NCBI RefSeq assembly: GCF_004375085.3 | Contig: NZ_SNAQ03000003.1 | Location: 248,001 to 312,000 of the forward strand | DNA length: 64,000 bases | Origin: Lewinella sp. W8 | GTDB taxonomy: Bacteria; Bacteroidota; Bacteroidia; Chitinophagales; Saprospiraceae | Direction of reading: 5' to 3' | Part shown: positions 410-64,000 of the stretch, piece after piece | How the letters are laid out: the number at the start of each line of letters is the position of its first letter | Position numbering within the stretch: the stretch's first letter is position 1 | Translations under genes and position numbers: made by a program | The notes under the pieces: generated by a model | What the model saw: only the letters and a program-made list of their open reading frames with translations | Databases searched by the model: none | Told to the model about the DNA's origin: nothing

Positions 410-545
410 GTGATTTAATTTTTAATGGGAAATTGTAACAGTCAATGGGTCGTTGAAAAGCTTTATCTATAAGTTTAGATTTTAAAGCCAGGGGCAAAAG
501 AGCCAAACAATCGATTTTGCACCGCTAGTCAAAGACAGAAGTAAC

Positions 546-1490
546 TTATTTTCTGGAGTTAGGATCCAAAAAGCCGTTAACTTCCAACCAGTACGTGAAA
601 GCATCAAACCAGCGATTACTGGTGCGGTCGGGGTTGCCCAACCCGAACCCATGACCGCCGTTTTGGTAAAGGTGGAATTCGACGGGAATACCAGCTTTAT
701 ACCAGGATTCTATTACACCAAACTGACCCCGGAACAGAAAATCATCGGTAGCAATCACGCTGAACATCGGCGGTGCATTTTCGGGAACCTCTACTGGGCC
801 CATGCCTCCATAAACTGGTCCAATGAAAGCCAAATCCATAGTTTTGGAATGCAGGGTGGAATGCATCGTGAGACCGGCACCGGCGGAGAAACCAATCATT
901 CCGATCCGGTCAGTATCCACGCCCCACTCGTCGGCCCGATCTACGATCATCTTGTAGGCCGCCTCAGCGTCGGCCAACTGATTGGATAAATCCCACCGTG
1001 GGCGGGGATCCGGAGTTTCCTCTTTATTTGTGTCAGGTTGAGGTACTCCCCGAGGTCGGTTCATCCAGGCAGTGAAATCTTCTAATTTTTCAGCGGTGGG
1101 GTGCAGCCGGTACTTCAGTACAAAGGCGGCGATACCCTGCTCGGCAAGTGCTTCGGCTACTTCCCAACCCTCGTTGCCCAGGGAGAGCCAGTGGAAACCG
1201 CCCCCCGGAGCGACGATTACTGCCGCACCGTTAGCTTTACCCGGTTTTGGCAGGAAAGGGGTAAGCGTAGCAGTTGTAATGTTACGGGCCATTGGGTCCC
1301 CCCATTGCCTAAACCACGACTCTGAGGCTGGTTGATCTTTAACACCACCGGTGCCAAGGAGAATGGCGTTGGGTTCTTCGGGTGCTTCAAGAGGGTAGAT
1401 AGTCCCGTCCTGCGCCGGCAGAATTAGCGCACAAAACAGCAAACATCCCAGCAGGACGGTTTTAAGTTGAAATGAATTTGGATGAATCAC
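546..1490 (-). CDS. Acetylxylan-esterase-like alpha/beta hydrolase
   Basis: A 314-residue secreted serine hydrolase with an N-terminal signal peptide (hydrophobic residues 11-25, cleavage near PAQ). The alpha/beta-hydrolase landmarks are visible. An oxyanion-loop motif PGGGFHWLSLGNEGW sits at 95-109, the nucleophile elbow GFSAG at 200-204 makes Ser202 the nucleophile, an acidic residue lies at ATDD (249-250), and His280 is in NGGHGFG. The pattern matches the esterase/lipase family (COG0657) often annotated as acetylxylan esterase or 'xylanase' in polysaccharide-utilisation clusters. It most likely removes acetyl groups from xylan in the periplasm or outside the cell. It shares strand with the GH9 and GH43 genes, so co-expression is plausible. 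The exact substrate cannot be read from sequence. Confidence 0.8.
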   Translation of the reverse strand: MIHPNSFQLKTVLLGCLLFCALILPAQDGTIYPLEAPEEPNAILLGTGGVKDQPASESWFRQWGDPMARNITTATLTPFLPKPGKANGAAVIVAPGGGFHWLSLGNEGWEVAEALAEQGIAAFVLKYRLHPTAEKLEDFTAWMNRPRGVPQPDTNKEETPDPRPRWDLSNQLADAEAAYKMIVDRADEWGVDTDRIGMIGFSAGAGLTMHSTLHSKTMDLAFIGPVYGGMGPVEVPENAPPMFSVIATDDFLFRGQFGVIESWYKAGIPVEFHLYQNGGHGFGLGNPDRTSNRWFDAFTYWLEVNGFLDPNSRK

Positions 1491-48488: not shown

Positions 48489-48551
48489 GTTTGGGTATAG
48501 TTAGGGGTGAAGCCGAAAGGAGTTCTTTCGCCGTTCCTGAAAATCATTGTC

Positions 48552-49574
48552 ATGCCACAACATCTAAAACGATCCTCCGATAGCCGTGTCCAGAAGTCCA
48601 ACCTTCTGGTTGACGCCAGGTACAAACTCAACATGTGGGAAACCCGCATCTTCATCAAGATGATCATGATGATCGATCACACCGACGAAGACAATAAGGA
48701 GTACCATATATACCCACGTGACATTATTAACGATTTTCAGCTGTTTACCGATAAGTCGGCCTACCGGTACATCCGTGAAGCCGCCGACTCGCTGCGTAAC
48801 CGCTCCATCACCTTTCCGGAGACGACCGAGAACGGAGATGTCTACGAGGTCAACACCAGCATCCTGACGGTTACCAAGAAGAAGATCAAAGGTAAACCGG
48901 ACGCTTTTATTAAGGTTAAGTTCGCTGCGGAACTAAAGCCTTACTATAAGGACGCTGACGGGAAGACCTTAAAACCACAACAAGCGGAGGCCTTTAGCAA
49001 GGCGGGAAAGGTTGTTCAGGTAATACCGATGCCTCGTACTTTTCACCTGTTCAACGTGGCGGACATCGATGGTATCGATTTCGAGTTTCCGGAGATCAAA
49101 GAGAACCCTAATAGTCCCATTCAGCAGTGCGACGATTTCGTGGCCACTTTCCACCAAGCTCCCGAGGTGCTCCATGATAACCTCGATGAAGCCTTCTACA
49201 GCGTCACCTACGACCGCATTAACATGCCACCACTACCGCGTTTTCACGCGCCGGAAGCCTACTATAAAACGCTCTTCCACGAGATGACCCATGCTACCGG
49301 TAGCGCCGGACGGCTGAAACGTCCCGGCATCACCCTTCCCCAGGAGCAGCGGCGTCCCGGCTCTGCTCCTTACGCCCTGGAGGAACTTACCGCCGAACTA
49401 GGGGCTGCCTATCTTTGCCAGATCGCTGGTATCAGCAGTCAGCCACTGGAAGAAAACGCGGCGGCTTATCTCGAGGGCTATCTCACGCATCTGCGGAAGG
49501 ATAAGAAGTTCTTGTTTCAGGCGGCTTCGGCGGTGCAGAAGGCGGTAGATTTCTTGCTCAAGGAAAAAGACTAG
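48552..49574 (+). CDS. Chimeric Rep_3 plasmid initiator / ArdC zincin protein
   Basis: The start was taken at ATG 48552. A GTG at 48507 is also in frame. 340 residues. Residues 1 to about 130 match the first winged-helix half of Rep_3 (RepB-like) plasmid replication initiators (NLLVDARYKLNMWETRIFI, DKSAYRYIREAADSL). The second half of Rep is missing. From about 131 the sequence is the metallopeptidase half of ArdC-type antirestriction proteins. It reads YYKDADGK, HLFNVADIDGID, then the zinc motif HEMTH (243-247) with the downstream EELTAELGAAYL. The ssDNA-binding half of ArdC is absent. A deletion seems to have fused two plasmid genes in frame. Activity is doubtful. Confidence 0.75.
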   Translation: MPQHLKRSSDSRVQKSNLLVDARYKLNMWETRIFIKMIMMIDHTDEDNKEYHIYPRDIINDFQLFTDKSAYRYIREAADSLRNRSITFPETTENGDVYEVNTSILTVTKKKIKGKPDAFIKVKFAAELKPYYKDADGKTLKPQQAEAFSKAGKVVQVIPMPRTFHLFNVADIDGIDFEFPEIKENPNSPIQQCDDFVATFHQAPEVLHDNLDEAFYSVTYDRINMPPLPRFHAPEAYYKTLFHEMTHATGSAGRLKRPGITLPQEQRRPGSAPYALEELTAELGAAYLCQIAGISSQPLEENAAAYLEGYLTHLRKDKKFLFQAASAVQKAVDFLLKEKD

Positions 49575-49672: not shown

Positions 49673-49825
49673 ATGAAGCGTATACCCATAGGTGAGAGCC
49701 ATATCCGCATCGACGAAGAGTCAGGATTCTTGTGCATCACGGACATGGCCGGTGTTATTGGTAATCCTCACGATAATATCAAAAACTGGATGCGATTGGG
49801 TAGCACTATCGAATTCTTCCAGGTG
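49673..49825 (+). pseudogene. KilA-N domain gene fragment
   Basis: ATG at 49673. Residues 1-50 include the KilA-N opening LCITDMAGVIGNPHDNIKNWMRLGSTIEFF, which is specific for this phage/mobile-element DNA-binding domain. After IEFF the family expects a WE-type continuation. Here the frame instead runs to 49978 through sequence that is antisense to the neighbouring minus-strand gene. The KilA-N gene was thus broken at about 49823 and only its 5' end remains. Confidence 0.6.
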
Positions 49826-50599
49826 GAGCGTGGTTGTCGCCGAATAATTATGGATACTGCAGTCCCCACGAAAGGTACATTCTTGCAAATTCAGGTAATC
49901 ACCGGTCTTGTTGTTTCTGAGCTCAAACCCGTTATGGAAATTGGCCATGATATACAGGCTTTCTTCTCCATTCAGTAATTGACAATCTGATAATAAAAAA
50001 CGGCCGAAAAAATCGTTGATGTCGATGTCTAATCCCTGTTCTGTTGTCGATTGAACAATGGAGAAAGGCGACTTAAAGTGGTTGCCATGGAGCCTAAGTG
50101 TCCCTTTGAATAGGCAATTGTCAAACATGTCCACATTTTCATTGAAACGACAGTTCGTGACGAGAATCTGCTTTTTAAACTCGCAGCTCACTAAACAAAC
50201 TTCATCGAAGAAACGAACGGCTTCCATCTCTACCTCATCCACAAATACGCAGTCGAACATTAGGAGCAACTTGCGAAAAACGTAGCGTTCAAACAGGCAG
50301 GCATAATCTGGGTGTCCGGGTTGATCCTCCAACTCAAGACCAGTAATAATGAAATTCTGCAGCATGATCTCCTCGCGGCGCGGATCATCATTTAGGTAGC
50401 TCAACAGCGTAACAAAGCTCTCAAAGCAGGCATGATTTCTCTTCCAGTCAATGTCCTTACTGTGAAACAAACAAAGGCCTTCTTCATCGTGTGGTAAAAC
50501 GAAATCATCGTCGTTTCCGGAAGGATCGAGGGCCGCAATGTAGGCAGGCCAAGAGCAGGTTTTCTCATCTCCCTTGACGCTATATACCTGTTTGCACAA
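49721..50599 (-). CDS. Beta-helix (pentapeptide-like) protein of unknown function, 3' end likely truncated
   Basis: Up to 292 residues, with the TTG at 50599 as the only workable start. The N-terminal part has CKQVYSVKGDEKTCSWPAY and GLCLFHSKDIDW, a possible Cys/His zinc site. Residues about 110-250 show a loose repeat of roughly 20 residues with Cys/Phe at regular positions (CVFVDE, SCEFKK, NCRFNE, NCLFKG, ECTFRG), as in right-handed beta-helix or pentapeptide-type proteins. The last 35 codons are antisense to the KilA-N fragment, so the natural C-terminus was lost at about 49823. Function not recognised. Confidence 0.55.
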   Translation of the reverse strand: MCKQVYSVKGDEKTCSWPAYIAALDPSGNDDDFVLPHDEEGLCLFHSKDIDWKRNHACFESFVTLLSYLNDDPRREEIMLQNFIITGLELEDQPGHPDYACLFERYVFRKLLLMFDCVFVDEVEMEAVRFFDEVCLVSCEFKKQILVTNCRFNENVDMFDNCLFKGTLRLHGNHFKSPFSIVQSTTEQGLDIDINDFFGRFLLSDCQLLNGEESLYIMANFHNGFELRNNKTGDYLNLQECTFRGDCSIHNYSATTTLHLEEFDSATQSHPVFDIIVRITNNTGHVRDAQES

Positions 50600-50699: not shown

Positions 50700-53600
50700 C
50701 TACACATCATGAAACACCGTCGTACTCCCCGACCCCTGCGACAACAACCAACTCACCAGCGTTGCAATGCCCGCCGAGTAGGTCTGCCCCTCGGGGTTCC
50801 AGATGTTCTCGTCCATGGTGGGTTCAGTGTAGGCAATGTGGGGATCTTTTCCGTCCCAGAGCCGCTCAATGAGGCCATAGCCGTCGGCCCGGAGCATCTC
50901 CCGGATGAGGGTGAAGGCCGCCCGGCCGTCCCGGAGCCGGGCCTGATTGCTGCCCGCCAGGGTGGTCTTGTTGGAGCGTTCCAGCTGGAGGCGCTGCTGC
51001 AGCAGCGCCACGCGGTGATCCCGGATGGCGGTCACCTTCCCCCCTACCCGATCAAAACCCGTGAGCGCCACGTCGGTGCCGCCGTCAAAGGTCAGCCCCC
51101 GCCGGCGCATGGTCGTGGAACCGGTCAGCATCCACTGGTCGTCGATGATGACCGTCTGCGTGTTCAGTCCGCTCGGCCGACCGGGAAAGCCCATCGGATG
51201 AAAGACCACCGTACGGTCGTCCCGCAGCAAGGGAGTAGTCGTGCTGCTCCCCGAGGTTGTCGCTACGAATAATTTAAACCGCTCCGCGATTTCCTTTTTC
51301 CGCAACGGATGGTAGCGCCGGTCGTATTCCGGCACTTTGGGCACGCAGATCATCAGCTTCAGCGCCGGGACCTCGTTCATCCGGTCCTGAATCATCTTGA
51401 GTACATCCCGGGAATACTCATTGCCCGCGGTGCCGTAGCGCACCGGTCCCAGGGCGGGCGTTTCCAGGTAGATGAAGTTACGGGCGGATTGGATACCCTC
51501 TTCCAGCGCCCACAGGCTATCCCGCCGACCGTAACAGGCCGTGGACAGTTCCCGCAGGACCTCGCTGTACAGGCGTTCCCGTTGACTCTCCGACAGTGCA
51601 TTACCGTCTTTCTGTTGTTCCAACCAGTTCACCACTTCGGTTCGCAACCGCGTTACCCCGGTGCCCAGTACCCCCGGCAGAGACCCTACGTTGAGGCTGT
51701 TTACCCAGGCTTTTAACTGATCGACGAGAGCGTCAAAGGAGGTGGGAATGCTGTTGATGTTACCGTCCACCAGACTCTTCAGCAGGGCCAGTTCGGGGGT
51801 TTCGGCGTTGGGACTGATGGTCTGTAACACAACCGAAGCAAAGGGCCCGGCGTCGGCGGTCTGGTCGGTGCCGATGGCCAGGGCCGTAGGTTCAGCGGGC
51901 TCGCCCCAGTTGGTGTCGTCGACCAGGATGGGCAGTCGGGTGTAGAAACTCTCCGTACGCCGCAGCGCGTGGCGGGCCAGGGTGTAGGCCAGGCGCCCGT
52001 GTTGGGTGTAGAGCCCGGTACTCTGCGTTTCCCGGCTCCCCGGACTGCCGGGGGCACCCCGGCGGGGTTCGGCCGTGTGCAGGCTTCGGTCCACGCGACT
52101 GCCGCTAATCAGCCCCCGCCAGTTCGTTCCCCGGCGGCTTCCGGCGAGTATCTCCCGACGGAGCATCAACGGCAAGCGCGGAGCATCCCGACCGATGGGA
52201 TTGGTCTCCCCCATGGCCTGCAGCGCCGCATTGAGCAAATCCTCCGCCGAAGGAGAAGCGGGAAGGTTGACGGTCGGACCCGGCAGTCCCACCAGTCCGG
52301 CGTGTCCAATTCCCCGGCGCGCGACGTCCCGGAGCCCGTTGTCTACCGGCGTAGTGGTGTCGGCCACGGCGGTGGTGGAGATGGGAAGTTGTACGTTGCC
52401 GTAAATCCGACGGGTCCCGTTGCGCAGGACCACCACCAGGTCTACGTTAAGTTGCGGTTCCACGGCGGCCACGAAATTGCCGGGCGTGACTTCCAGACCC
52501 AGCGGATCCTCCAGGCGCAGCACCAGCAGTCCGTTGTAGGTTCGTCCGCTCAGGGCGGCGACTTCCGTTCCTACGGTGCCACCGGCACCGTCGCCCCGCT
52601 CTTCAGTAAAGTCGGTGCCCAACCTCCGGTGATACGCCCGTACGGCGGCCCCCACGGGCAATCCCGTCAGCGTCAGCAGCACGTTCACGTCCACCGGTTG
52701 CCCTTCGTCGATGAAGGCGGCGGTGGAATGTTCGATCAGCTCCGCCCGCAAGTTGGGGGGCAGGCTATCTTCCATGGTGGCCGTCAGGCCACCGGGCAGC
52801 GCGGGAAAATCGGGCCATTGGGTCGTCGCCAAATCCGGCGGTAGCGTGAAATCTTCTTCGATGGTCTCCCCCACCAGCAGGGCGTCGTCGGGACTTCCCT
52901 CCACGATCGCACTCAATCCCCCCATCACGTCATTACCGGAGGAAAGCAGCTGTATGTGGTCGTGTAGGCGGATGATCGGCTTGGGCTCAATTTTACTGCC
53001 GTTGAAGGCCGCATCCGGCGTACCGGTGAGGTAGGTGGTCAGGTCCAGCACCTCTAGCGTGAAGAAGTCGTGCTTCAGGGTAACGCCCCCGGGGAGGGCG
53101 GGCAGCCGCACCCGGTTGCTCAGCCGTCCGTAAGCGGCCGCACCGACCATCAGGAGCCGTGCCTGAGCGTCCGGGAAATCGCCACTGTTACCCGTGCCCG
53201 CCTTGCGGTTGATCTCCCGTAGAATGGTGGTATCCGTGCCGCTGAAGGCCGCGGCCGGAAAGATGCCCTGGGCGGTGAATGCGCCCGTACTCTCCAGGTT
53301 TTCCATCAGGTTCGTACCGTCGTATGGGGTCCCGTTCCGACGCACAAGCCGTACCAGAAAGCTACCGTTTGTCTCCAGGTCATTGATGGCCGTAAGCTGG
53401 TCGGGCGCACTATCGTCGGCCAGCAATACCTCGTGTTCTCCGGCCAAAGCCAGGAGGGCCGAAGCCACGCTGAGCGGGTCGATGGGATGGCCCTGCTCGT
53501 CGTAGATGGTCAGGTTGCCCGACATGCCGATGTCCTCCCCTACGTCAATTTGCCCGCCCAGTTGGGAGCCCGGAAAGCTCCCCTCGATGAAAAAGTAGTT

Positions 53601-53999
53601 GGGTACCGAACGCAGGCTTTCTCCCCGCTCGCGGCGGGGATTGTGGGTGGTGTTATCCTCCAGGAGGTTTGCGTACAGCCGACGGAGCCTTAGGTAGGCC
53701 CCCGGGTCCAGTTGGAGCACCAGGCCCTCCTGGGTCACCGCCGTGCCACCGGGTTGCATCAGGCTGACGGGCAGATTGTAGGGGGTACCACCGCCAACCT
53801 TGTGTACCAGCCCCCCAAAGGGTGCCAGCCAGTTAGCGCTGCTTTGCAGTTGCATGTTCTGGCGACTGTAAGTGATTTGTCCGCTGATGTCCGCCTGTGC
53901 CACGTCAACCCACCGCCGGCTGAAGCGTGGGAACGTCAGGCCGAAGGGTTGCAGCTGAAAATTATCGAGTCCTTGCCGGATGAGGGTTTCGCCTAGCAT
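50700..53999 (-). CDS. Giant unknown protein with degenerate phospholipase-D-like domain (module gene 3)
   Basis: 1099 residues, no signal peptide, no membrane helix. About 800 residues of beta-rich, Pro/Gly-rich sequence without recognised family come first. Residues about 815-985 then resemble a PLD fold: LWALEEGIQSARNFIYLETPALG and LKLMICVPKVPEY, then NTQTVIIDDQWMLTGSTTMRRRG. In active PLD enzymes the last block carries HxKxxxxD. Here the His and Lys are missing, so catalysis by the standard mechanism is unlikely. It is the third gene of a tight minus-strand set (18 bp after its neighbour). High GC like the flanking giant genes. Confidence 0.6.
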   Translation of the reverse strand: MLGETLIRQGLDNFQLQPFGLTFPRFSRRWVDVAQADISGQITYSRQNMQLQSSANWLAPFGGLVHKVGGGTPYNLPVSLMQPGGTAVTQEGLVLQLDPGAYLRLRRLYANLLEDNTTHNPRRERGESLRSVPNYFFIEGSFPGSQLGGQIDVGEDIGMSGNLTIYDEQGHPIDPLSVASALLALAGEHEVLLADDSAPDQLTAINDLETNGSFLVRLVRRNGTPYDGTNLMENLESTGAFTAQGIFPAAAFSGTDTTILREINRKAGTGNSGDFPDAQARLLMVGAAAYGRLSNRVRLPALPGGVTLKHDFFTLEVLDLTTYLTGTPDAAFNGSKIEPKPIIRLHDHIQLLSSGNDVMGGLSAIVEGSPDDALLVGETIEEDFTLPPDLATTQWPDFPALPGGLTATMEDSLPPNLRAELIEHSTAAFIDEGQPVDVNVLLTLTGLPVGAAVRAYHRRLGTDFTEERGDGAGGTVGTEVAALSGRTYNGLLVLRLEDPLGLEVTPGNFVAAVEPQLNVDLVVVLRNGTRRIYGNVQLPISTTAVADTTTPVDNGLRDVARRGIGHAGLVGLPGPTVNLPASPSAEDLLNAALQAMGETNPIGRDAPRLPLMLRREILAGSRRGTNWRGLISGSRVDRSLHTAEPRRGAPGSPGSRETQSTGLYTQHGRLAYTLARHALRRTESFYTRLPILVDDTNWGEPAEPTALAIGTDQTADAGPFASVVLQTISPNAETPELALLKSLVDGNINSIPTSFDALVDQLKAWVNSLNVGSLPGVLGTGVTRLRTEVVNWLEQQKDGNALSESQRERLYSEVLRELSTACYGRRDSLWALEEGIQSARNFIYLETPALGPVRYGTAGNEYSRDVLKMIQDRMNEVPALKLMICVPKVPEYDRRYHPLRKKEIAERFKLFVATTSGSSTTTPLLRDDRTVVFHPMGFPGRPSGLNTQTVIIDDQWMLTGSTTMRRRGLTFDGGTDVALTGFDRVGGKVTAIRDHRVALLQQRLQLERSNKTTLAGSNQARLRDGRAAFTLIREMLRADGYGLIERLWDGKDPHIAYTEPTMDENIWNPEGQTYSAGIATLVSWLLSQGSGSTTVFHDV

Positions 54000-54017
54000 A
54001 ATGAAGCACTTGGGATT

Positions 54018-57000
54018 TTAGGAAAAGTCGATCAAAAGGCTGGTACTACGCCCCAGAGGGTCGGTAAGCCGGACGGCGAGTTGCTCATAGTCTTCGTGTA
54101 CGCGAAGGAAAATGCTGTCCCGCTCCGGAAAAACGCCAACTTCTATGTCATCGGCGGGGTCGAAGGGGGCCGGGTGTCTGCCGCTGAATCGGCGGTCCAT
54201 AACGGGTAGCTCACTCAGTTTTGCCGAGAAGATGGTCCGCATCTTGGGTGGTGCATTGGGCGAGGTCGCAGGTGCCAACAGTTCTAGTTGGGCAAACTTA
54301 CCCTGAACCGTCTGGAAGGGAGCATCCGTTTCCAGCGTAGCGGTGTGGCAGTCCCAGCGCTTTAAGCTTCGCTGCCGACTGAGTTGCAGGGCCGGTGGGT
54401 TCATGGGGGGGAAGTAGGCTTCCACCGTGGGGGATCCCGTAGAGATCGATTGCCACAAGCCTTCAGGGCGGTCTTCCGGGCCCACCGCAACGGCCTGGTA
54501 GTAATAGGGCTCCCAGCTCGGGGAAGCTACGGGGTCGAGTAGCTTTTTCCCCGGAGAGGTGCTGCCGTCAAGGTTGGTCAGCTGGTAAGACTGCCACTCC
54601 GGGGCGGTTTCCGGGTAAACCGGTAGCCCCTTCATCTGCACCACATTGGAGGCGATCCGCTTTCGCACCCGGTAAAGCTTGAAGCCCGCGGGCTCCGGCC
54701 CGGCACCATCAAGCACCACCACTTCCATTCCGGGTACGCCCTTTTGTTGGGGCCTTACCCGGAGTACGGGTGGTCCCGGAACCTTCTGCTGGGGAACGGC
54801 GAAGAAGACGACGTTTGAGCGTTCGGACTCCACGTTGGCGGACGTCATGGCACTAACCCGATAGAGGAAAAGGACTTCACTCGCGCCCGGTAAATTAACC
54901 TGAACGGAGGTGGTGCGCAGGGGGTCGCGGTTGAGCCGTACGAAGGCCCTCAGGCTATCGCGATCGTTGTTGGGGTCGTTGAGCGCATCCCGTAATTCGG
55001 TGGCTCGTTCCACCAGGGAGTCGTTCGGGTCCTGGGGTAGCCCCAGGGTAGTACGTATGGCCGTTTCCGAGGCCTCCCACACCACGTAGCCCACCGCGCG
55101 AGTTACTGCGGGCCAACTCAGGGTGCCCCGGGCCACCTTTGTGGCGTCCGGTAGGCTTGTCCAGTTGATCGTGGCGGGCAGATTTAATTTTACTGGAGGG
55201 CGGGGGTCATCCATGCGGTCGCTGACCGGAGCGGTCCAACCGGACCACACGGCCGTTCCGGCCCGCACGGCATCCTGCGCTCGCGCCCTCGCCACGTAGG
55301 CTATGCGCGAAAGATTATTGGCCGGCGGCGGTGCGGGATTGTCCAACGGACCCGGAAAACTGGCCACCACATTATCCACGGTCACCCGGTAACGCCGGAT
55401 GTTGGGATCCGGAGAGGAGCCGCTCGGCGCGAGCTCGACCACCGACTGATTGCTACCGCTTACCTGTGGCACTCCGCTACCGGAGAAGGTAATGCGGACG
55501 ACCGGATCGTTGCCGTTGGCCGCCGTGAGGGCCAACCGGTCCGTAAAATTCGGCAGGGCCGTCTCCCGGTCGGCCGGATAAAACCCACCGGCAATTTCGA
55601 TGGCTTCCGGACTGCGTTCGGTCCAGTCCCAGCTCACGTCAAGGAGCAGCCGGGTGGCCACCTGACTGGAGTTACCGTTGGGCAGGGCCGGATCGTGTTC
55701 CAGCTTTACGGAAATCATCCCCGGTGGCTGGGTGGACAGGCCCTCGGCCAGATAATTGGTTTTTCCGTAACCGGACCACCGACCAAAAATGTCTCTTGCC
55801 GCCAGGTAATAGCTGCGATTTTCACTTCCGGCCAACGGTATCGGTGCGTTGGGCAGGACGTAGGCAATGCGTTGCTCCACGGCATTTTCTGCGGTGGGTA
55901 CGTTCAGGATTGCGGGTTGATAACTGGAGTTCCCCAGCCCTCGGTTCGTGTTGAGGACCTTCATCTGCCCTCCGGACGCCTGAAAGAGCCCGTAACTCAC
56001 GGGGAATGCCGGTGCCCGGCAACTTATCTCGACTGCCTCCGTGCTGTTACCGTCCCGGGTAAGCGGGCGATTCTGGTGGAGGCGTTGGGATCGTACCTGC
56101 AGCGGGGTGGCCGGCCGGTCCACGTGTTCGGCCAGGGCGGCGTATTCCTGTTTGATCGTAAACTGCTCGGGTAAGCCCGGGAAATTCGGTTTGATGGTGA
56201 AGGTATTGGTCACCATGTAGAAATAGTCCAGCCGTTCCTGGTTGACGCCGGAGTAGTCATAGGTACCGTACCCCAGGGCAATGCCGACGTAGTGGTCCAT
56301 GAGTGCGGCCAGGAGCGTCGTGCTCACCACGGGGATGAGGGCCGTTCCGGGGTCAATGTTTCCCGGATATCCTTCCTGCCGTAGCCCGTCCACCACCATC
56401 TGACTGAGGTAGGCCGGTTGCCGTTGCTGCGGGTCGGGGGAAGCATCATCACATTGTTCCAGGCATTTGCGAATGTGGGGAAGAATTCCTCCCTGGAATT
56501 GCTCCAGGTCAAAGAGGAAGTCCGCAGCCGGTGGCGGAAGCCAGTCCGTCGCGCTAACCCCGGGGTCGGTGGAAGGTGGCAGGGGCTCCTGGAGGTACCC
56601 CGCCAGTCCGAGCAGGGCCTCGTGAAACTGCCGCGGCGCCATGGGCGCTGCAACCATGCCCTGGGGAGAAGTGTCGTAGGCCGACGGATCAATACTTCCG
56701 GGATCCAGGGGTAGGCCCACCCTTTGCATCAGCTCCCAGTTGGGGGAGTTGATCAGCGCCGTTTGGTAGTAGACCCTGATTTCCCGCACCACTCCCCTAC
56801 CCGTAAAGCTATAGGCGGAGGTGAAGGGATGGTTGAAAAAGTAGGTGCCCGAAAGCGTAAGCAATTTGGTGGCTCCCGGAATCGGGATGCCCTGGGGCCC
56901 CAGCGGCGTGACGCTCAGGGTCTGGCCACTGGACAGATCAACGCTGATCAATCCGTGGTAAACGTACCCTCCGGGATTGTTGACGGTGAGTTGTCCGTCA

Positions 57001-57239
57001 ACCTGCCGTCGGTTAGTGATGACCTTTTGGTAGTTGAACTTGTTGCGGTGCCTCCAGAGCAAAAAGGGCTGGCGGGGAAGGCCGAAATTGGCTTCGTGGG
57101 TCCAGCGCATCATATTGATGCCCTTGGGGATGTTCCGCCCCCGGGCGATCCGGGTAGCCCGGTCGCTGGTAGGCTTGGGGTCAAAAGGCTCCAGGGGGCG
57201 ACTAAACAACCGAAATGAAGGATGTGCGATTCTTGCCAT
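54018..57239 (-). CDS. Giant unknown protein with fibronectin-III-like regions (module gene 2)
   Basis: 1073 residues, no signal peptide or membrane helix. The first 550 residues (starting MARIAHPSFRLFSRP) match nothing I recognise. The C-terminal half shows Fn3-like stretches: ATKVARGTLSWPAVTRAVGYVVWEAS and a linked EVLFLYRVSAMTSANVESERS, then VPGPPVLRVRP with GFKLYRVRKRI. It starts 3 bp after the upstream giant gene and ends 18 bp before the next one, so the three are co-translated. The repeated beta-sandwich content suggests a structural or adhesive component. A functional call cannot be made. Confidence 0.6.
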   Translation of the reverse strand: MARIAHPSFRLFSRPLEPFDPKPTSDRATRIARGRNIPKGINMMRWTHEANFGLPRQPFLLWRHRNKFNYQKVITNRRQVDGQLTVNNPGGYVYHGLISVDLSSGQTLSVTPLGPQGIPIPGATKLLTLSGTYFFNHPFTSAYSFTGRGVVREIRVYYQTALINSPNWELMQRVGLPLDPGSIDPSAYDTSPQGMVAAPMAPRQFHEALLGLAGYLQEPLPPSTDPGVSATDWLPPPAADFLFDLEQFQGGILPHIRKCLEQCDDASPDPQQRQPAYLSQMVVDGLRQEGYPGNIDPGTALIPVVSTTLLAALMDHYVGIALGYGTYDYSGVNQERLDYFYMVTNTFTIKPNFPGLPEQFTIKQEYAALAEHVDRPATPLQVRSQRLHQNRPLTRDGNSTEAVEISCRAPAFPVSYGLFQASGGQMKVLNTNRGLGNSSYQPAILNVPTAENAVEQRIAYVLPNAPIPLAGSENRSYYLAARDIFGRWSGYGKTNYLAEGLSTQPPGMISVKLEHDPALPNGNSSQVATRLLLDVSWDWTERSPEAIEIAGGFYPADRETALPNFTDRLALTAANGNDPVVRITFSGSGVPQVSGSNQSVVELAPSGSSPDPNIRRYRVTVDNVVASFPGPLDNPAPPPANNLSRIAYVARARAQDAVRAGTAVWSGWTAPVSDRMDDPRPPVKLNLPATINWTSLPDATKVARGTLSWPAVTRAVGYVVWEASETAIRTTLGLPQDPNDSLVERATELRDALNDPNNDRDSLRAFVRLNRDPLRTTSVQVNLPGASEVLFLYRVSAMTSANVESERSNVVFFAVPQQKVPGPPVLRVRPQQKGVPGMEVVVLDGAGPEPAGFKLYRVRKRIASNVVQMKGLPVYPETAPEWQSYQLTNLDGSTSPGKKLLDPVASPSWEPYYYQAVAVGPEDRPEGLWQSISTGSPTVEAYFPPMNPPALQLSRQRSLKRWDCHTATLETDAPFQTVQGKFAQLELLAPATSPNAPPKMRTIFSAKLSELPVMDRRFSGRHPAPFDPADDIEVGVFPERDSIFLRVHEDYEQLAVRLTDPLGRSTSLLIDFS
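54258..54277 (+). repeat. Dispersed 20-bp motif, copy g
   Basis: gggcgaggtcgcaggtgcca, identical over all 20 bases to copy i at 63390-63409. On the coding strand it gives LAPATSPN. Confidence 0.75.
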
Positions 57240-57242
57240 GAT

Positions 57243-60200
57243 TTATTCCTCCCAGGGAGCTTTTGCGTTAAGGGTAATGGTGATCAGGGGTTCCTGCTTA
57301 TTGGTCAGCCCGTAGAAACCGTTACCGGGCTGCTGGATGTTGAGCGTCAGATCACTTGATCCGCTACTGGGTAAGCTGGTCGGGTCAAGCAATACCAGGC
57401 AACGGGTGCCACTGGTCGACCGTACGAAGTAGTCTACGTGGTTCGAGCCGCTGGCTTCCAGTAATTCCAGGGATGCTTCCCTTCCGGTTTCCCAAATCTG
57501 GAAAGCGGGGTCGATTACGTTTCCGGCGCCGTCCTGCACCGACTTCTTCTCCGGTTTTACCCGGTCTTTCCACATGGGTTCTGCCGCATCAATAAGGATG
57601 GCCCGCGGTCGGAACCCGGCACCAGCGACTTCCCACAACTGCCAGATGCCGGTTTTGTTGGCCCCGGCCTGCGGGGTCATTCCGGCGGCCGTCAGTACGG
57701 ATTCCAGCATGGCATCGTCAATGAAGGCCACGTCTGGTCGGGAGGACTGACTGCCCGCAGCCGGTAGTCCCGCAAGCGGTTGCGTCAGGGCCATGGAGTG
57801 GACGGGAAGCGTATTGATGGACTGGGCGAAATCCGCCAAATCCGCAAACTGACTGGTTTTGAAGGCACGCCGGAAGGGAGGAACAACGGACGCTCCATCC
57901 GCTGGCGGTGGAGTGGGCAGTACCTCGATGTCGAAGGTGTAAGGCGTGCTTGGTTGCAGCTGGAACGGAGCTTCGTAGAGTCCGTGTTCGTTGATCATCA
58001 CCGAGCCACTGGCGCAGGGCAAAATACCCGCCGCAATCAGGTTTTCTACTGCTTCGCGGTACGGAGTGAGTACTTCGGCAGCCTGCCCCGCCAGCGCGGT
58101 GATGGCATCCGGACTTCCGTTTACGGCCCCCCCGTCTGCCTTACGAATTACGCCCCGCAACTGCTTGCCGTAGGCCTGGTACATTTCCAGCGTACCCCGG
58201 TCATTGAAGATCACCTTCAGCGGATCGTTGAAGAAGTGGTATTCTTCGTCCATTTCGGGGGTGGTGCCCAAAACGTAGGGTTTCAGTTCCGGTGGCGGCA
58301 CGTTATCGGTACGGAAAGAGAACTCTTGGGTGATGGTCTCTTCGTGGTCGTGGGGAATACCTTTGGCACTAACCGATTCTACCTTCGCCTTGTACTTGGC
58401 AATCAGGTGATAAACGCGGTTGGGTTTAAGTAAGGGACGGTCCGATTCCCCGTGGCCGAGGTAACCTTCCAGCGTATCCAACTGGGTTTGCTGCACGGCT
58501 TCAATGTGGGCGACCTGTTCGGCTTCGCTGAGGTGTAAACGTTCCACCGCCGCCAGATACATCGGCGGTACGTTAGGCGAAACCTTCGTGGTTACAAACC
58601 TTACCCGAACGCATTTCTCGGGGTTTTTCGGCTTGAAGGTGAAAACATGTTTTTCGTAAGCCTTGAAAAAATCCGAATGCAGGAAACGGGTGATTTCGAT
58701 GACCTTGTTTCTCCAGGGCAGTACGGGGTCGAGCCAGTCGGAGGGGAAATCCGATGCGCTACTGACGGGACTACCCAGAAAAGTTCGTAGCGGAGCTTCG
58801 TGCAGGACTTTGCCCTCTTCATCCAGTTCTTGCACCATGATGTGATTCTGGAATTTGATGAAAACGGCGATGTAGAAGTGGAGGTATTCTACGGCTCCCG
58901 TTTCCAGGTCGAGCAGGCACTCCAGGGGATTTTGCAGCAGGTATTCCTGAAGGATTTTGGCTAGCTCCTGGTTTTGCTCCAGCAGGGCGTCGCCGGTGCG
59001 GTCGTGCTGGCGTAGGGGGTAAGGGAATTGCAATGCCCGGTAGCAATGTGGCATTTTCTCCAGTCCCTTGTTACAGTTCCGGTAGTAACACAATTGGGTG
59101 ATCACGCCCTTTACCTTTCGGAAGGAAACCACGAGGGTATAGATGCCTTCGGCCTCGATGGTCAGCACGGCGGTTCCCATCCCGGAGGTCAAAAGCTCGC
59201 CTTCTTTCCCGGTGATGCGTTCACCCTTGGCGTTCAGGGCCGCCAAATCATAGGTTCCTTCCCCACGGAAAACTACCCGGAGGTCGATGCGGCACACCGA
59301 CTCTTTAAACTGGATGCTGAGTTTGCCGAATTCAACGCCCCTGGTGTTACCGAAATCAATGATGCGGGCATCCTTAATGGACACGCCTTCGTGTTCGATG
59401 GTATCGCGTGAGCCGGGTAAGAAAATGTCGGGGTTAAGTCTGCCCGGGAATCGAATCGTGGGCCCGGGGTTGACCATAACCATTCCCGGGTCGAGGGTTG
59501 GTGTCGACCTGATCTCGCGAAGAATGGCGGGGTCAATTACGGGACCTCTGGGATCGATGGAAATTCTGTTCGGTGGTGGCTGGGTGGGCAGTTCCGGTTT
59601 AAGGATTGCTTCCAGGCGCTCCCGCGGCGTAAGTGTAGTTTCGTCAACGGGACGGAAAACGTTTTCCCGAAGTCGTCGCAGGCTGCGATCGCGCTTCACG
59701 ACCAGCTCATCCTGCCAGTCCAGTAGTGGATGACGATCCGATTTTTCGGTGAAGTCAATACAGGTTTTTTCGGGCTTCTGGCCGTCCACCACCATCCGGT
59801 GGGAATAATCAATTTCTTCGGTGTATCGTCCTGGAGGAACGGGAATCCCCACAACCCTGGCGTCGGCTTTGCTGGCCAGGCCGTAGGCCTCCAGGGTGTT
59901 TTGCCAGGCGTCGGAGCCTCCCTGGGGCTCCCGGATGATCAGTTGGTCGTCGGGTTCACCCTCCCGCAGACTGTCGTCGGGATCTGGCTTGACGCAGCCC
60001 GTCAGGGTCCACCCGGAAGGTGAGGGCCCCAGCGGCTGGCCGCAGAAATGGAAGAATACGCTGGCCGGAGGTGCTGGTTTTTTACAAAGATTCTCCCACT
60101 GGACCTCAATTCGGCGGTTAAGTTCACTGCTTCTTTCGAGTGCGCGCGCGGCGGTCGTGGGTACCCGGGAGAATAGGGCCAGATCCACCGATTTATGGGC

Positions 60201-63200
60201 TTCGTTATTGAGTCCGCTACCGCTGTCTTCCTTGCGCCAGGTTGCCGGCACGGGATCCGGGTCATTGTAGGCGGAGCCATTTTGCTCGATCAGCGAAAGT
60301 TCGAGGAGCTCATATCTGATTTTGGTTTCTTCACTCAGCCGGACCCACCCCCCCGGCCGGAGGTCCGGGCTGGTCCCCAGCGGCTCGGTAAAGGTGGTAG
60401 TACCGGAAGTAACCGGAGAAGCGTAGAACTGAATGACGGGCACCGTGTCGATGGGTACCACGGGCAGGTCGGTCGTAACCCGGCCCTCGGCGGCGTTGCC
60501 GAGGCTGGCGTCAATCGGCCGGTCACCACCCTGCCCGGAAAGCAGTACCGGGGCGTAACTCTGCAGATACACGCCATTGATCAGGGGAGGCGCTTGCACC
60601 TTCCTGACGCCACGTTCAATGGTGATGTCGATGCAGGCGCTGACGCTGAAGAAGAAGAAGTCCACCTTACCGCACACCTCACCGTGGATGTAGATATAGA
60701 ACGGATCATTGTTCAGTCGGGTAATCTCTACGTCCAGGGTTCCACTGGCGCCGATACTGATGATGAATAGACGAAGTTCTCCCCGGAAAAACATGCTGCC
60801 CACCAGAATGAAGGGAGAAAAAGAAAGTCCGACGTGGAAACCGGCTCCAATTTCGAGGTACAATCGTGCGGGGCGGGACCCAAAAAGTAGGGAGGCTTCC
60901 ATACCCAGGGCGATGGCCACTCCCTGAAGCGTTTTATTCAAAATTGGCGCGCTACTTGGCACGTAGGGCAGCTGTCCGGGGAAGGTCAGCTCATGGCCCT
61001 GAATCATGAAGTAAGCACTACCCCGCACCATATTCAGGATGTTGGCGGAAACCGGAACGGCGTAGGTGCCGAGCCAGAAGTGCCAGTGGCTGGGGTCATC
61101 GAGTTTAAATAGGATCTCGATGGGGATTTTAAGTTGTAGCACTTCCTCAATCTCAAAGTCGATCAGGACGCCAATGGTGATCTTCTGCTGCTCAAAATCC
61201 AGATCGATCACGGCAATAATGCCGGTGGTTAGCTGAGCGGCATCACTGTCGACCCCTTCGGGCTTTACGCTGATGAATTTCATCTTCACCATGATGAGAA
61301 TGCGCGGCCCGGGTAATTCGAGCACGAACATTCCCTGGAAATTGGCCGTAAAGCCAGTGTCCATGGTGCCAAGAATAACGCCGACCCCGAAGGACCAACG
61401 GTCAAAGCTAGGCCCCCAGAGCGCCTGCCCGCCAGCATTGCGGAGTTGCGTCGGATCTCCGTCGGCCTTGACGAGCCAGCGCAGGGCCGGCCCAATCGGG
61501 TCGGCGGCCTGGGCGGGGTCCTCCAGTCGGCGGTAATGCATGGCGAAGAGCCCCATGATTCCGTAGAGACCCAGTCCCGAAGCCCCCAAGACAATGGGAG
61601 AGGGGAATTCAACGCGTAGGCCGACAAAAACGCCAACCCCTTCCCTGCCGGTGTTATTGTCCCGCAGGCTGGTAACGCCGACGCTTCCGGCGATGCGCAG
61701 TTTAACGGGCACGATGGTCAGATCTAATCCCCCCTCAATGCCCTTGGCCGTGATGGTGGACCCATCGGGTTGGGTGACCGGGCCATCGACGATGTTCACA
61801 AAACCATTACCCACCAGGGTGCCGGGAATATTGACCTTTACCCCACTGGGCATGATCTGGACGTTTCCGTCGCCGTCCAGTGGGATTTTTATCTTGAACT
61901 TGTCCACCGTAATCACCCCGAGATCGGCCTTGATCGACAGATCGATTTCCAGCGTCAGGGGGTTAAATCGCGCCAGACGCGCAGCCGTCACACCGAAAAG
62001 GTTTCCGAGGGGTGCGGGTAAGCTGAAGAGGCTGGGGTCGGTGAGGTTAAGGTCGTATCCCTTACTGGGGTCAAAGATTGGGGTGTAGTCCAGCCCCCCC
62101 GTAGTGGAATGGTGGTGGAGCTGGAAACCAATGGCTTTGTAGCGAACCTTGAGGGGCGGAGCCGTCGCGTTGGCTACGTTGCGGTCTGCGCCGATGCCGA
62201 TGCTGGGGACCACCAGGTCAAATTCGACCCCGTAGTCAAACATGATTGCGACCTGAATGGAATTGGGGCCGGGAGCACCGGGCTCGCTGAATTTCACCAT
62301 TAATTCGCCGCCATAAAGGACAACCCTTCGGGTCCGGACGATGCCTAACGCGCCGATGGCAACCGGCACGGCCAGGCTCGCTCCCAGACCAAGCCAGGCA
62401 CCTGCGTCCTCGCTATTATCTGCCGTGTTTACGGCGGCGGCGTTGATGATTGGCGCAAAGATCATCAGCGCTCCAAAAATGTTTTTGAAGGCATCCGACT
62501 GTGGTCCCGTACCGTTTTGCAGGTGCACCAGGCCGTCGGTGTCTCCGGGGTCCGACCCGAGGGCCAGCCCTACGCCGTATTCGCTGGTGGCCGTATTATA
62601 GGTGTAGAGCACCTTGAAGTCCACTACCCCATCCTCGTTGTTCTGGTTACCGTTGCCGTTGCGTAAAGCCAGCGCTCCAGCACTATTGCCCGACGCCGTC
62701 CGGAGTTGTTGCTCCATCGCCGTTTCGAAGTCCACCTTACCGTTCAGTTCGAGCAATACCATGGTGTTGCGCTCGAAGCGCACCCGAAAGCCCAGGCGGC
62801 GGATCACCGTCGGCATTTCGTTGGGCGGGGGATTGCCGGTTCTTTCGGGAGTCGGTGGCGGAACGACGGTTGGGGGTGTCGGTGGAGTGCCCCGGCCGAT
62901 GGTCGCCTGAATATTGATCGCCGTAGTAGCGGTGAAGGATCCGGTGATCCGGAAGGCCTGGAAGGTGCGTGTTGGCCCATTGGCGCTACCGCTGCCGGCG
63001 TAATTTTGGTTGCTATTGGCCTGTACGGTGTGGGTGGGGGTACTGATGCCCATCAGACTGGCCAGCTTGGTGAGCAGGGCGGCGCCAACCGCCGCCCGGT
63101 TTTCACTTAGTTTCTGGTCGTGGCTAAGGTTGGTTCGGTAACTGGCGAAACCATCTACCTGTGTAGTACCCGTCAGGTTCCCCAGGTGCGGCAGCCAGGC

Positions 63201-64000
63201 GTTAAATCGGGCTAGCTGGCTGACGAACTGCGGATCTCCACTGGCTGGACTGGCGGGTAAATTCAATCTCGGGCGCAGGGGGTCGGAGTTATCCAGGGTC
63301 AGCGCGTTAACGTCCGCCCGGTAGTTGGCCAGTTCGGCGGCGGTGTAGGGCTTATCGATGGTGAAGGTGACTTCCAGACTGGCGGCGGGGGGCGAGGTCG
63401 CAGGTGCCACGAAGGCCACGTTGTAGCTGGCGCCCTGGGGTAAGGAGAAGCTTAAATCCCGATCCTGGTTGGTAATCTGCTTGGTCAGATCCGGTAGTCC
63501 ACCACCCCGGGAGATGGTCAGGTCGCCGGCGCGGTTGCCGGCCACCGTGAGCCGTTCAACCAAGCCGCTCCGGGCGGGAACGTGATCCAGCCGGTGCTGG
63601 GCGGTAAAGCCGCTGACGGGCGTGAGTACGGCGGCGATGTAATCCGGCGACGGGTTGCGATCCTGTGGGGTGCCGGTCCCTCCCCGGCTGCTGTCGTTTT
63701 CCAGCCGCTGCACGTTGACGTTCAGCCATTCGGCGTACTTGCGGGGAGTGGGTGATAGGCTGTCCTCCACGTAAACCAGGTAGCGCTGGTCGGTGCCAAT
63801 GGTGTCAAAAACGGCCCGTCGCTGGGCCGATTGCCACACGTCCGAAGACCCCCGGAATACCCGAATGGTGTAGGGCGGATGGCCGCCACTGATGTCCACC
63901 GTAAGCACCGAGTTCTGGGTGACGGTGGCGCGCCCCGGCGGGGCACTCGGACTGGTGACGGAAGGCGGGCTGGCGGGGGCGGAAATGATGCCGTGCGTAA
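57243..64000 (-). CDS. Giant unknown protein with Ig/SprB-like, OmpA-like and beta-rich domains (module gene 1, 5' partial)
   Basis: At least 2250 residues. The frame stays open to the right edge, and the GTG at 63908 is only an internal codon. Near the visible N-terminus VLTVDISGGHPPYTIRVFRG looks like an Ig/SprB-type repeat. At about 63075-63170 VDGFASYRTNLSHDQKLSENRAAVGAAL resembles the peptidoglycan-binding OmpA C-terminal helix, followed by a proline-rich linker (TPPTPPTVVPPPTPE). About 650 residues of repeating amphipathic beta strands follow (GVGVFVGLRVEF, GEVCGKVDFFFFSVSACIDI), then an acidic, less repetitive C-terminal half. No catalytic motif was found. It heads the three-gene module. 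Confidence 0.65.
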   Translation of the reverse strand, partial: THGIISAPASPPSVTSPSAPPGRATVTQNSVLTVDISGGHPPYTIRVFRGSSDVWQSAQRRAVFDTIGTDQRYLVYVEDSLSPTPRKYAEWLNVNVQRLENDSSRGGTGTPQDRNPSPDYIAAVLTPVSGFTAQHRLDHVPARSGLVERLTVAGNRAGDLTISRGGGLPDLTKQITNQDRDLSFSLPQGASYNVAFVAPATSPPAASLEVTFTIDKPYTAAELANYRADVNALTLDNSDPLRPRLNLPASPASGDPQFVSQLARFNAWLPHLGNLTGTTQVDGFASYRTNLSHDQKLSENRAAVGAALLTKLASLMGISTPTHTVQANSNQNYAGSGSANGPTRTFQAFRITGSFTATTAINIQATIGRGTPPTPPTVVPPPTPERTGNPPPNEMPTVIRRLGFRVRFERNTMVLLELNGKVDFETAMEQQLRTASGNSAGALALRNGNGNQNNEDGVVDFKVLYTYNTATSEYGVGLALGSDPGDTDGLVHLQNGTGPQSDAFKNIFGALMIFAPIINAAAVNTADNSEDAGAWLGLGASLAVPVAIGALGIVRTRRVVLYGGELMVKFSEPGAPGPNSIQVAIMFDYGVEFDLVVPSIGIGADRNVANATAPPLKVRYKAIGFQLHHHSTTGGLDYTPIFDPSKGYDLNLTDPSLFSLPAPLGNLFGVTAARLARFNPLTLEIDLSIKADLGVITVDKFKIKIPLDGDGNVQIMPSGVKVNIPGTLVGNGFVNIVDGPVTQPDGSTITAKGIEGGLDLTIVPVKLRIAGSVGVTSLRDNNTGREGVGVFVGLRVEFPSPIVLGASGLGLYGIMGLFAMHYRRLEDPAQAADPIGPALRWLVKADGDPTQLRNAGGQALWGPSFDRWSFGVGVILGTMDTGFTANFQGMFVLELPGPRILIMVKMKFISVKPEGVDSDAAQLTTGIIAVIDLDFEQQKITIGVLIDFEIEEVLQLKIPIEILFKLDDPSHWHFWLGTYAVPVSANILNMVRGSAYFMIQGHELTFPGQLPYVPSSAPILNKTLQGVAIALGMEASLLFGSRPARLYLEIGAGFHVGLSFSPFILVGSMFFRGELRLFIISIGASGTLDVEITRLNNDPFYIYIHGEVCGKVDFFFFSVSACIDITIERGVRKVQAPPLINGVYLQSYAPVLLSGQGGDRPIDASLGNAAEGRVTTDLPVVPIDTVPVIQFYASPVTSGTTTFTEPLGTSPDLRPGGWVRLSEETKIRYELLELSLIEQNGSAYNDPDPVPATWRKEDSGSGLNNEAHKSVDLALFSRVPTTAARALERSSELNRRIEVQWENLCKKPAPPASVFFHFCGQPLGPSPSGWTLTGCVKPDPDDSLREGEPDDQLIIREPQGGSDAWQNTLEAYGLASKADARVVGIPVPPGRYTEEIDYSHRMVVDGQKPEKTCIDFTEKSDRHPLLDWQDELVVKRDRSLRRLRENVFRPVDETTLTPRERLEAILKPELPTQPPPNRISIDPRGPVIDPAILREIRSTPTLDPGMVMVNPGPTIRFPGRLNPDIFLPGSRDTIEHEGVSIKDARIIDFGNTRGVEFGKLSIQFKESVCRIDLRVVFRGEGTYDLAALNAKGERITGKEGELLTSGMGTAVLTIEAEGIYTLVVSFRKVKGVITQLCYYRNCNKGLEKMPHCYRALQFPYPLRQHDRTGDALLEQNQELAKILQEYLLQNPLECLLDLETGAVEYLHFYIAVFIKFQNHIMVQELDEEGKVLHEAPLRTFLGSPVSSASDFPSDWLDPVLPWRNKVIEITRFLHSDFFKAYEKHVFTFKPKNPEKCVRVRFVTTKVSPNVPPMYLAAVERLHLSEAEQVAHIEAVQQTQLDTLEGYLGHGESDRPLLKPNRVYHLIAKYKAKVESVSAKGIPHDHEETITQEFSFRTDNVPPPELKPYVLGTTPEMDEEYHFFNDPLKVIFNDRGTLEMYQAYGKQLRGVIRKADGGAVNGSPDAITALAGQAAEVLTPYREAVENLIAAGILPCASGSVMINEHGLYEAPFQLQPSTPYTFDIEVLPTPPPADGASVVPPFRRAFKTSQFADLADFAQSINTLPVHSMALTQPLAGLPAAGSQSSRPDVAFIDDAMLESVLTAAGMTPQAGANKTGIWQLWEVAGAGFRPRAILIDAAEPMWKDRVKPEKKSVQDGAGNVIDPAFQIWETGREASLELLEASGSNHVDYFVRSTSGTRCLVLLDPTSLPSSGSSDLTLNIQQPGNGFYGLTNKQEPLITITLNAKAPWEE
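62397..62414 (-). repeat. Dispersed 20-bp motif, copy h (degenerate)
   Basis: On the minus strand this reads AGCGAGGACGCAGGTGCC, encoding SEDAGAW. It keeps the GCAGGTGC core. Confidence 0.5.
63390..63409 (+). repeat. Dispersed 20-bp motif, copy i
   Basis: gggcgaggtcgcaggtgcca, exact match to copy g and in the same reading frame (VAPATSPP) although the surrounding proteins are unrelated. This points to insertion of a DNA element rather than protein homology. Confidence 0.75.

What the first reader, a model, noticed from the sequence alone, without database searches (positions are those of the whole stretch)
50700..64000. Three-gene module of giant proteins (1099, 1073 and >2250 residues) with no known function
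The genes are separated by 3 and 18 bp and all are on the minus strand, with high GC and no transposase-like neighbours. The first has Ig/SprB-like, OmpA-like and long amphipathic beta regions, the second Fn3-like parts, the third a PLD-like domain. The two complete proteins lack signal peptides, so they may form a large intracellular or specially exported assembly. I know no system with this make-up.
Basis: partly seen in the sequence, partly recalled or inferred. Interest (0 to 1): 0.7.

Follow-up and report, generated by a model that had tools for sequence, protein, structure and literature searches.

The report
Conserved operon of three giant proteins
Three adjacent giant genes form an undescribed operon kept intact across many bacterial phyla; one protein carries a huge oily-faced beta-sheet and another looks like a phospholipase D that has lost its catalytic residues, which hints at an unknown lipid- or membrane-handling machine.

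Summary
The trio is real. The operon reads A-B-C on the minus strand: A is 2604 aa (57243-65057, running past the window edge), B 1073 aa, C 1099 aa. None has a signal peptide or a Pfam, NCBIfam, PHROG or PADLOC hit of its own.

A profile-guided genome scan found 49 further loci in at least six phyla. B follows A in 48 of 49, and C follows B in 23, always in that order and orientation. Pairwise tree distances of A, B and C correlate at 0.98, so the cassette is inherited as a unit. It is rare: one full copy in about 390 sampled genomes of the phylum. No other neighbour is conserved.

A's core is a very divergent relative of Pfam DUF6603 (uncharacterised; no paper found). AlphaFold predicts about 30 long antiparallel strands, many with an uncharged face; the best structural matches are outer-membrane barrels (at high rmsd) and ApoB. 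C is a two-lobed phospholipase D fold (Z 25 to human PLD2) lacking the catalytic His/Lys in every member. B is Fn3-like only by eye.

Most likely this is a lipid- or membrane-handling assembly (confidence 0.35); its biochemistry is inferred. Contractile-injection cargo is unlikely as a general role: 36 of 47 cassette genomes lack the marker gene.

The parts
57243..64000 (-). Gene A, giant protein of 2604 aa; the gene starts at window coordinate 65057, beyond the right edge
   Evidence: orthologues in 49 further loci
60498..62855 (-). A core, residues 735-1520: about 30-strand amphipathic antiparallel beta-meander, distant relative of DUF6603
63054..63248 (-). Degenerate OmpA_C-like stretch of A, residues about 604-668
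54018..57239 (-). Gene B, 1073 aa, conserved LRW....G.P..PF motif at the N-terminus, Fn3/Ig-like by eye
50700..53999 (-). Gene C, 1099 aa, pseudo-phospholipase D
50796..53039 (-). C residues 321-1068: two-lobed phospholipase-D fold
   Evidence: Z 25.3 to human PLD2, rmsd 3.3, 405 residues aligned
51141..51164 (-). C residues 946-953: position of the second HKD motif; the Asp is kept, His and Lys are replaced

Best explanation
The three genes encode a co-inherited assembly that most likely binds or handles membrane lipids (or another hydrophobic ligand). SHOWN: operon order, co-inheritance, absence of Sec-type N-termini, absence of the catalytic His/Lys in C, and one nearly uncharged face on many strands of A. 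PREDICTED by AF2: C has a phospholipase-D fold; A's core is a long antiparallel beta-meander. INFERRED: A's hydrophobic face is covered by lipid or a membrane (as in ApoB, FadL/LptD-type barrels or lipid-bridge proteins). INFERRED: C, descended from a phospholipid- or phosphodiester-cleaving enzyme, serves as a non-catalytic head-group-binding or anchoring module. INFERRED: B, an Fn3/Ig-like rod, links the two. Because no protein has a Sec signal, the assembly is probably cytoplasmic, at the inner face of the membrane, or exported by a non-Sec route.
For: Cassette A-B-C conserved across Bacteroidota, Acidobacteriota, Pseudomonadota and Gemmatimonadota, with A-B in Actinomycetota and Myxococcota. 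A/B/C tree distances correlate 0.977-0.984 against a permutation maximum of 0.18-0.31. C is a PLD fold (Z 25.3, rmsd 3.3, 405 aa) with no HxKx4D/E motif in the window protein or any of 24 homologues. A-core model: pLDDT 77, about 30 strands; best matches are OccK/OprD porins, LptD, FadL and ApoB100. The more hydrophobic face averages 10% charged/polar residues against 36% on the other. Mycetohabitans plasmids carry a differently ordered set of a DUF6603 giant, a PLD-like protein with an intact HSKLMIVD motif, and a protein partly related to B, so the DUF6603 plus PLD pairing recurs.
Against: No biochemistry. Matches to barrels have rmsd 10-12 A and low TM-scores (0.1-0.3), so the sheet's true shape is unknown, and a long antiparallel meander alone can give such Z values. 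Twelve of 30 strands are not clearly two-faced. The window's own A does not reach DUF6603 by HMM. C is missing from all 18 actinobacterial loci and some alphaproteobacteria, so it is not essential to the core. Retained lipid binding after loss of the active site is an assumption; PLD-fold enzymes also act on nucleic acids.
Confidence: 0.35

Rival explanations
1. An exported assembly: surface structure, released particle or effector complex that leaves the cell by a non-Sec route (contractile injection, lysis or another secretion system).
For: Ig/Fn3-like and beta-rich proteins without signal peptides are typical of exported particles. The own genome has an eCIS-like cluster. A distant giant in the same genome has a signal peptide and lies beside a predicted barrel protein. 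PLD folds occur in secreted effectors such as Pseudomonas PldA.
Against: No export gene is adjacent in any locus examined. Only 11 of 47 cassette genomes have the eCIS marker. No phage homologue of A, and none of A core or C in viral contigs.
Confidence: 0.25
2. A large intracellular scaffold not concerned with lipids (for example an enclosure or organising platform for other proteins), with C as a pseudo-enzyme anchor.
For: Pseudo-PLD proteins of the FAM83 family act as anchors (PMC6008594). No catalytic domain was found in A, B or C. A-B alone suffices in Actinomycetota.
Against: Gives no reason for the long uncharged faces of A's strands or for the recurring DUF6603 plus PLD pairing.
Confidence: 0.25
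3. A pore-forming or toxic/defensive module: A inserts into a membrane as a large barrel when triggered.
For: Barrel-like strand pattern (Z 14 to porins). The cassette is patchy and spread across phyla, as many defence or antagonism systems are.
Against: No PADLOC match, no conserved defence neighbours, no recognisable trigger or immunity gene. The sheet does not superpose well on a closed barrel.
Confidence: 0.15

Closest known systems
DUF6603 family (Pfam PF20248), uncharacterised giant proteins
   Same: A's core aligns by profile (98.5% probability over 343 columns) and 13 of 45 homologous cores hit the Pfam model; both are encoded among other giant genes.
   Different: The window protein itself does not reach the model. 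Several DUF6603 loci in sampled Bacteroidia are flanked by two other giant families that are unrelated to B and C by profile-profile comparison.
Phospholipase D superfamily (human PLD1/PLD2, Pseudomonas PLD)
   Same: Two-lobed fold, Z 25.3 and 21.0, rmsd 3.3-3.5.
   Different: No HxKx4D/E motif in any member of the C family; about 320 extra N-terminal residues.
FAM83 pseudo-PLDs
   Same: PLD-like domain without the catalytic His, probably non-catalytic (PMC6008594).
   Different: Vertebrate kinase anchors; no evidence of common descent beyond the PLD fold or of a kinase partner here.
Mycetohabitans plasmid cluster (DUF6603 giant + PLD-like + 1322-aa protein)
   Same: Same three kinds of part in one cluster; the 1322-aa protein matches part of B (E 6e-11).
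   Different: Different gene order (B-like, PLD, giant); the PLD is 509 aa and keeps an HxKx4D motif.
Lipid-bridge (repeating beta-groove) proteins and ApoB
   Same: Long amphipathic beta-sheet with a hydrophobic face; ApoB100 is among the best Foldseek hits.
   Different: No sequence relation found; groove geometry not demonstrated.

Membership tests
DUF6603 (PF20248) | Match of the protein to the curated Pfam model over its cut-off | tested here: not met
   Window A: no hit up to E 10; own genome no hit. 13 of 45 homologous cores hit, best E 4e-15. So A is a distant relative, not a scored member.
DUF6603 superfamily (distant relation) | Profile-profile similarity of the core | tested here: met
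   hhalign A family vs DUF6603 set: 98.5%, E 1.5e-15, 343 columns
Phospholipase D superfamily | Two-lobed PLD fold | tested here: met
   Predicted model only:
Phospholipase D superfamily | Catalytic HxKx4D motifs | tested here: not met
   0 of 24 homologues and not the window protein
OmpA_C peptidoglycan-binding domain | Pfam match over cut-off and conserved Asp/Arg | tested here: inconclusive
   E 0.002, below cut-off, in one homologue; motif N..LS..R kept, acidic residue replaced by Ser in the window protein
Transmembrane beta-barrel | Closed barrel | tested here: inconclusive
   Z 14 to OccK porins but rmsd 11-12 A
Transmembrane beta-barrel of the outer membrane | Sec signal peptide | tested here: not met
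   Simple N-terminal hydrophobicity test with two secreted controls
Extracellular contractile injection system component | Encoded beside eCIS genes, or found only in genomes with eCIS | tested here: not met
   No adjacency; Pvc16_N in 11 of 47 cassette genomes
Phage or tailocin structural module | Homologues in phages | tested here: not met
   No match for A in phages; none for A core or C in viral contigs (pattern-limited scans). B was not searched there.
Anti-phage defence system | Match to PADLOC models | tested here: not met
   (library of 2023)
Repeating beta-groove lipid-bridge protein | Continuous groove lined by hydrophobic residues | tested here: inconclusive
   Amphipathic strands shown; coordinates not available to measure groove shape

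The most novel reading that the evidence does not exclude
A previously undescribed, horizontally spread bacterial machine in which a giant signal-less protein holds lipids or a membrane patch on a 30-strand beta-sheet, gated or anchored by a catalytically dead phospholipase D: a bacterial lipid carrier or conduit operating from the cytoplasm.
Probability: 0.2. Interest if true: 0.85.

Novelty: new variant of a known kind. Interest (0 to 1): 0.6.

Why it matters
It shows that a set of giant uncharacterised bacterial proteins is a fixed three-gene unit carried across at least six phyla, and it gives concrete testable handles (a pseudo-phospholipase D and an amphipathic giant sheet). If the lipid reading is right, it would be a new class of bacterial lipid-handling machinery outside the known AsmA/TamB, Mla and Lpt routes. 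Even if not, it gives a first genomic context for a branch related to DUF6603, on which no paper was found in the library searched.

Tried and rejected
Pfam, NCBIfam, PHROGs and PADLOC scans of the three proteins: nothing above cut-off. PDB sequence searches, single and profile: none or chance-level hits. Single-sequence search of 295 Bacteroidia genomes for B and for C: only the own genome. Profile search of 395 genomes of the phylum for B: the own genome, plus four weak partial matches. Contractile injection, T9SS or S-layer neighbours: none beside the cassette; the eCIS marker test argues against a general link, although no matched background rate was measured, so whether 11 of 47 is an enrichment cannot be judged. 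Relation of B or C to the giant partners of ordinary DUF6603 clusters: none. Synteny with sister species to find an empty insertion site: the flanking mannonate dehydratase is only about 50% identical and the left-flank gene has no match, so no empty site could be defined. Large antisense ORFs in high-GC loci first masked B or C; this was solved by scanning all frames with profiles. L028 is titled Williamsia but groups with Chitinophagales in the A tree and is probably a mis-binned contig. The viral structure library gave nothing at E <= 0.001 for the A core.

Full report
OBSERVATION. The trio exists as described. The giant is complete in the contig: A = 57243-65057, 2604 aa; B = 54018-57239, 1073 aa; C = 50700-53999, 1099 aa. 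Intergenic gaps are 3 and 18 bp. Upstream lie a mannonate-dehydratase-like gene, an SDR gene and, further on, what look like pentose/hemicellulose-use genes (names by eye). Downstream lie a pentapeptide-like gene and a Rep3_N/MPTase-PolyVal ORF. Nothing resembling secretion or injection machinery is adjacent.

CONSERVATION. tblastn against plasmids found A-B-C in the same order on Rhizobium tropici pRtrCIAT899c, and A-B on Paracoccus aminophilus pAMI4. A profile-guided scan of one genome per species found 49 loci. Iterated profiles show B directly after A in 48 of 49; the exception, L057, ends with its contig. C follows B in 23. Order and orientation never vary in these 49, and many A-B gaps are -4 or -1 bp, as in translationally coupled genes. 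A few loci (L027, L052, L056, L069, L070) have broken frames or masked bases. All 18 loci titled as Actinomycetota (L028 left out as probably mis-binned) have A-B without C. Patristic distances of the A, B and C trees correlate at 0.977-0.984, against permutation maxima of 0.18-0.31; part of that reflects shared species history. The A tree mixes phyla (an acidobacterium beside Bacteroidota, another beside an alphaproteobacterium), consistent with horizontal spread. No other gene family recurs beside the cassette except among close relatives. In the window's own phylum it is rare: 1 of 295 Bacteroidia by single sequence; 1 of 395 genomes with a full-length B. In the order, one more genome carries it (G703).

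PROTEIN A. Conservation is highest at residues about 250-300, 1000-1050, 1150-1200, 1300-1500 and 1650-1700. The core (735-1520) is distantly related to DUF6603: 13 of 45 homologous cores hit the Pfam model, best 4e-15, and the profile-profile comparison gives 98.5%. The window protein itself does not hit. AF2 (39 sequences) gives pLDDT 77, pTM 0.57 and about 30 strands, many of 12-18 residues. Foldseek's best E-values (3e-4 to 8e-4) are SlpA/SDBC, ApoB100 and OccD2. VIA-align gives Z 14 to OccK2 over 283 residues, but with rmsd 11.8. I read this as the same up-down strand order with a different overall curvature, not as a proven barrel. Family-averaged hydrophobicity shows 18 of 30 strands two-faced at p < 0.1; the more hydrophobic face averages 10% charged/polar residues and the other 36%. 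An OmpA_C-like stretch near residues 604-668 is recognisable, but the acidic residue is replaced.

PROTEIN C. AF2 (22 sequences) gives pTM 0.81, pLDDT 71. Foldseek and VIA place residues about 321-1068 on eukaryotic-type phospholipase D: PLD2 Z 25.3, rmsd 3.3, 405 residues; Pseudomonas PLD Z 21.0. No member of the family has an HxKx4D/E motif. At the second-motif position the sequence is of the TTTVIVDD type, with the Asp kept. Only His934 is a fairly conserved histidine (16 of 20), and it is replaced in one clade. C is therefore best called a pseudo-PLD. A precedent for pseudo-PLDs acting as non-catalytic anchors is FAM83 (PMC6008594).

PROTEIN B. No fold was computed. Conserved motifs are LRW....G.P..PF.VWRR near the N-terminus and D.FG.WS in the middle. 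Big_6 is hit weakly in 2 of 36 members. A linker/rod role is a guess.

RELATED SETS. Mycetohabitans plasmids carry a B-like protein (partial match, E 6e-11), a PLD with HSKLMIVD, and a DUF6603 giant, in another order. Sampled Bacteroidia DUF6603 loci carry other giant partners. The window's own genome has a second, more distant giant with a recognisable signal peptide, beside an Fn3 protein and a predicted barrel protein. So the A-type core occurs both with and without export signals.

TEST OF EXPORT BY INJECTION. The own genome holds an eCIS-like cluster on contig C9. Pvc16_N occurs in 11 of 47 cassette genomes, so injection is not a general requirement. Phage homologues of A were not found, nor of the A core or C in viral contigs.

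MECHANISM. The best reading is a lipid- or membrane-handling assembly: hydrophobic sheet (A), phospholipase-derived binding module (C), linker (B). Steps shown: operon, co-inheritance, no signal peptides, no HKD motif. Steps predicted: folds. Steps inferred: lipid binding, complex formation, location. Confidence 0.35; export (0.25), non-lipid scaffold (0.25) and pore (0.15) remain open.

NOVELTY. The parts belong to known superfamilies (DUF6603-like, PLD), but the cassette is not described in any paper found (open-licence papers only). I rate it a new variant of a known kind at the level of parts, and leave the categorical reading to the novel case.

Noticed in passing
G000 contig C9:69461-93509 (loci L112, L113): Apparently complete extracellular contractile injection cluster in the same genome (Pvc16_N, sheath-like, gp25, VgrG-like and baseplate-like genes), not linked to the trio.
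   Followed up: partly
L095:4616-15177 (own genome C11) and L097 (sister species): Second, distant A-like giant (2224 aa) with a signal peptide, beside an Fn3 protein and a predicted barrel protein; a possible secreted counterpart of the trio.
   Followed up: partly
window 48507-49574: 355-aa ORF joining a Rep3 initiator N-terminal domain to a C-terminal MPTase-PolyVal zincin, next to the trio; may be a plasmid or mobile-element remnant.
   Followed up: no
window 49721-50599: 292-aa pentapeptide-like protein directly downstream of the trio; no match in six relatives of the same genus or family.
   Followed up: partly
L077-L084: Typical DUF6603 giants in other Bacteroidia often sit with two other uncharacterised giant families (about 970-1270 aa, YTF-like start; about 1600-2160 aa), unrelated to B and C by profile.
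   Followed up: partly
L085, L096: DUF6603-like giants next to 1500-2240 aa proteins with an N-terminal GIHLRW motif like that of B.
   Followed up: partly
window 502-598: ARAGORN calls a tRNA-Pyl (CUA anticodon); probably a false positive.
   Followed up: no
L028: Contig titled Williamsia (Actinomycetota) but grouping with Chitinophagales in the A tree; likely mis-binned.
   Followed up: partly
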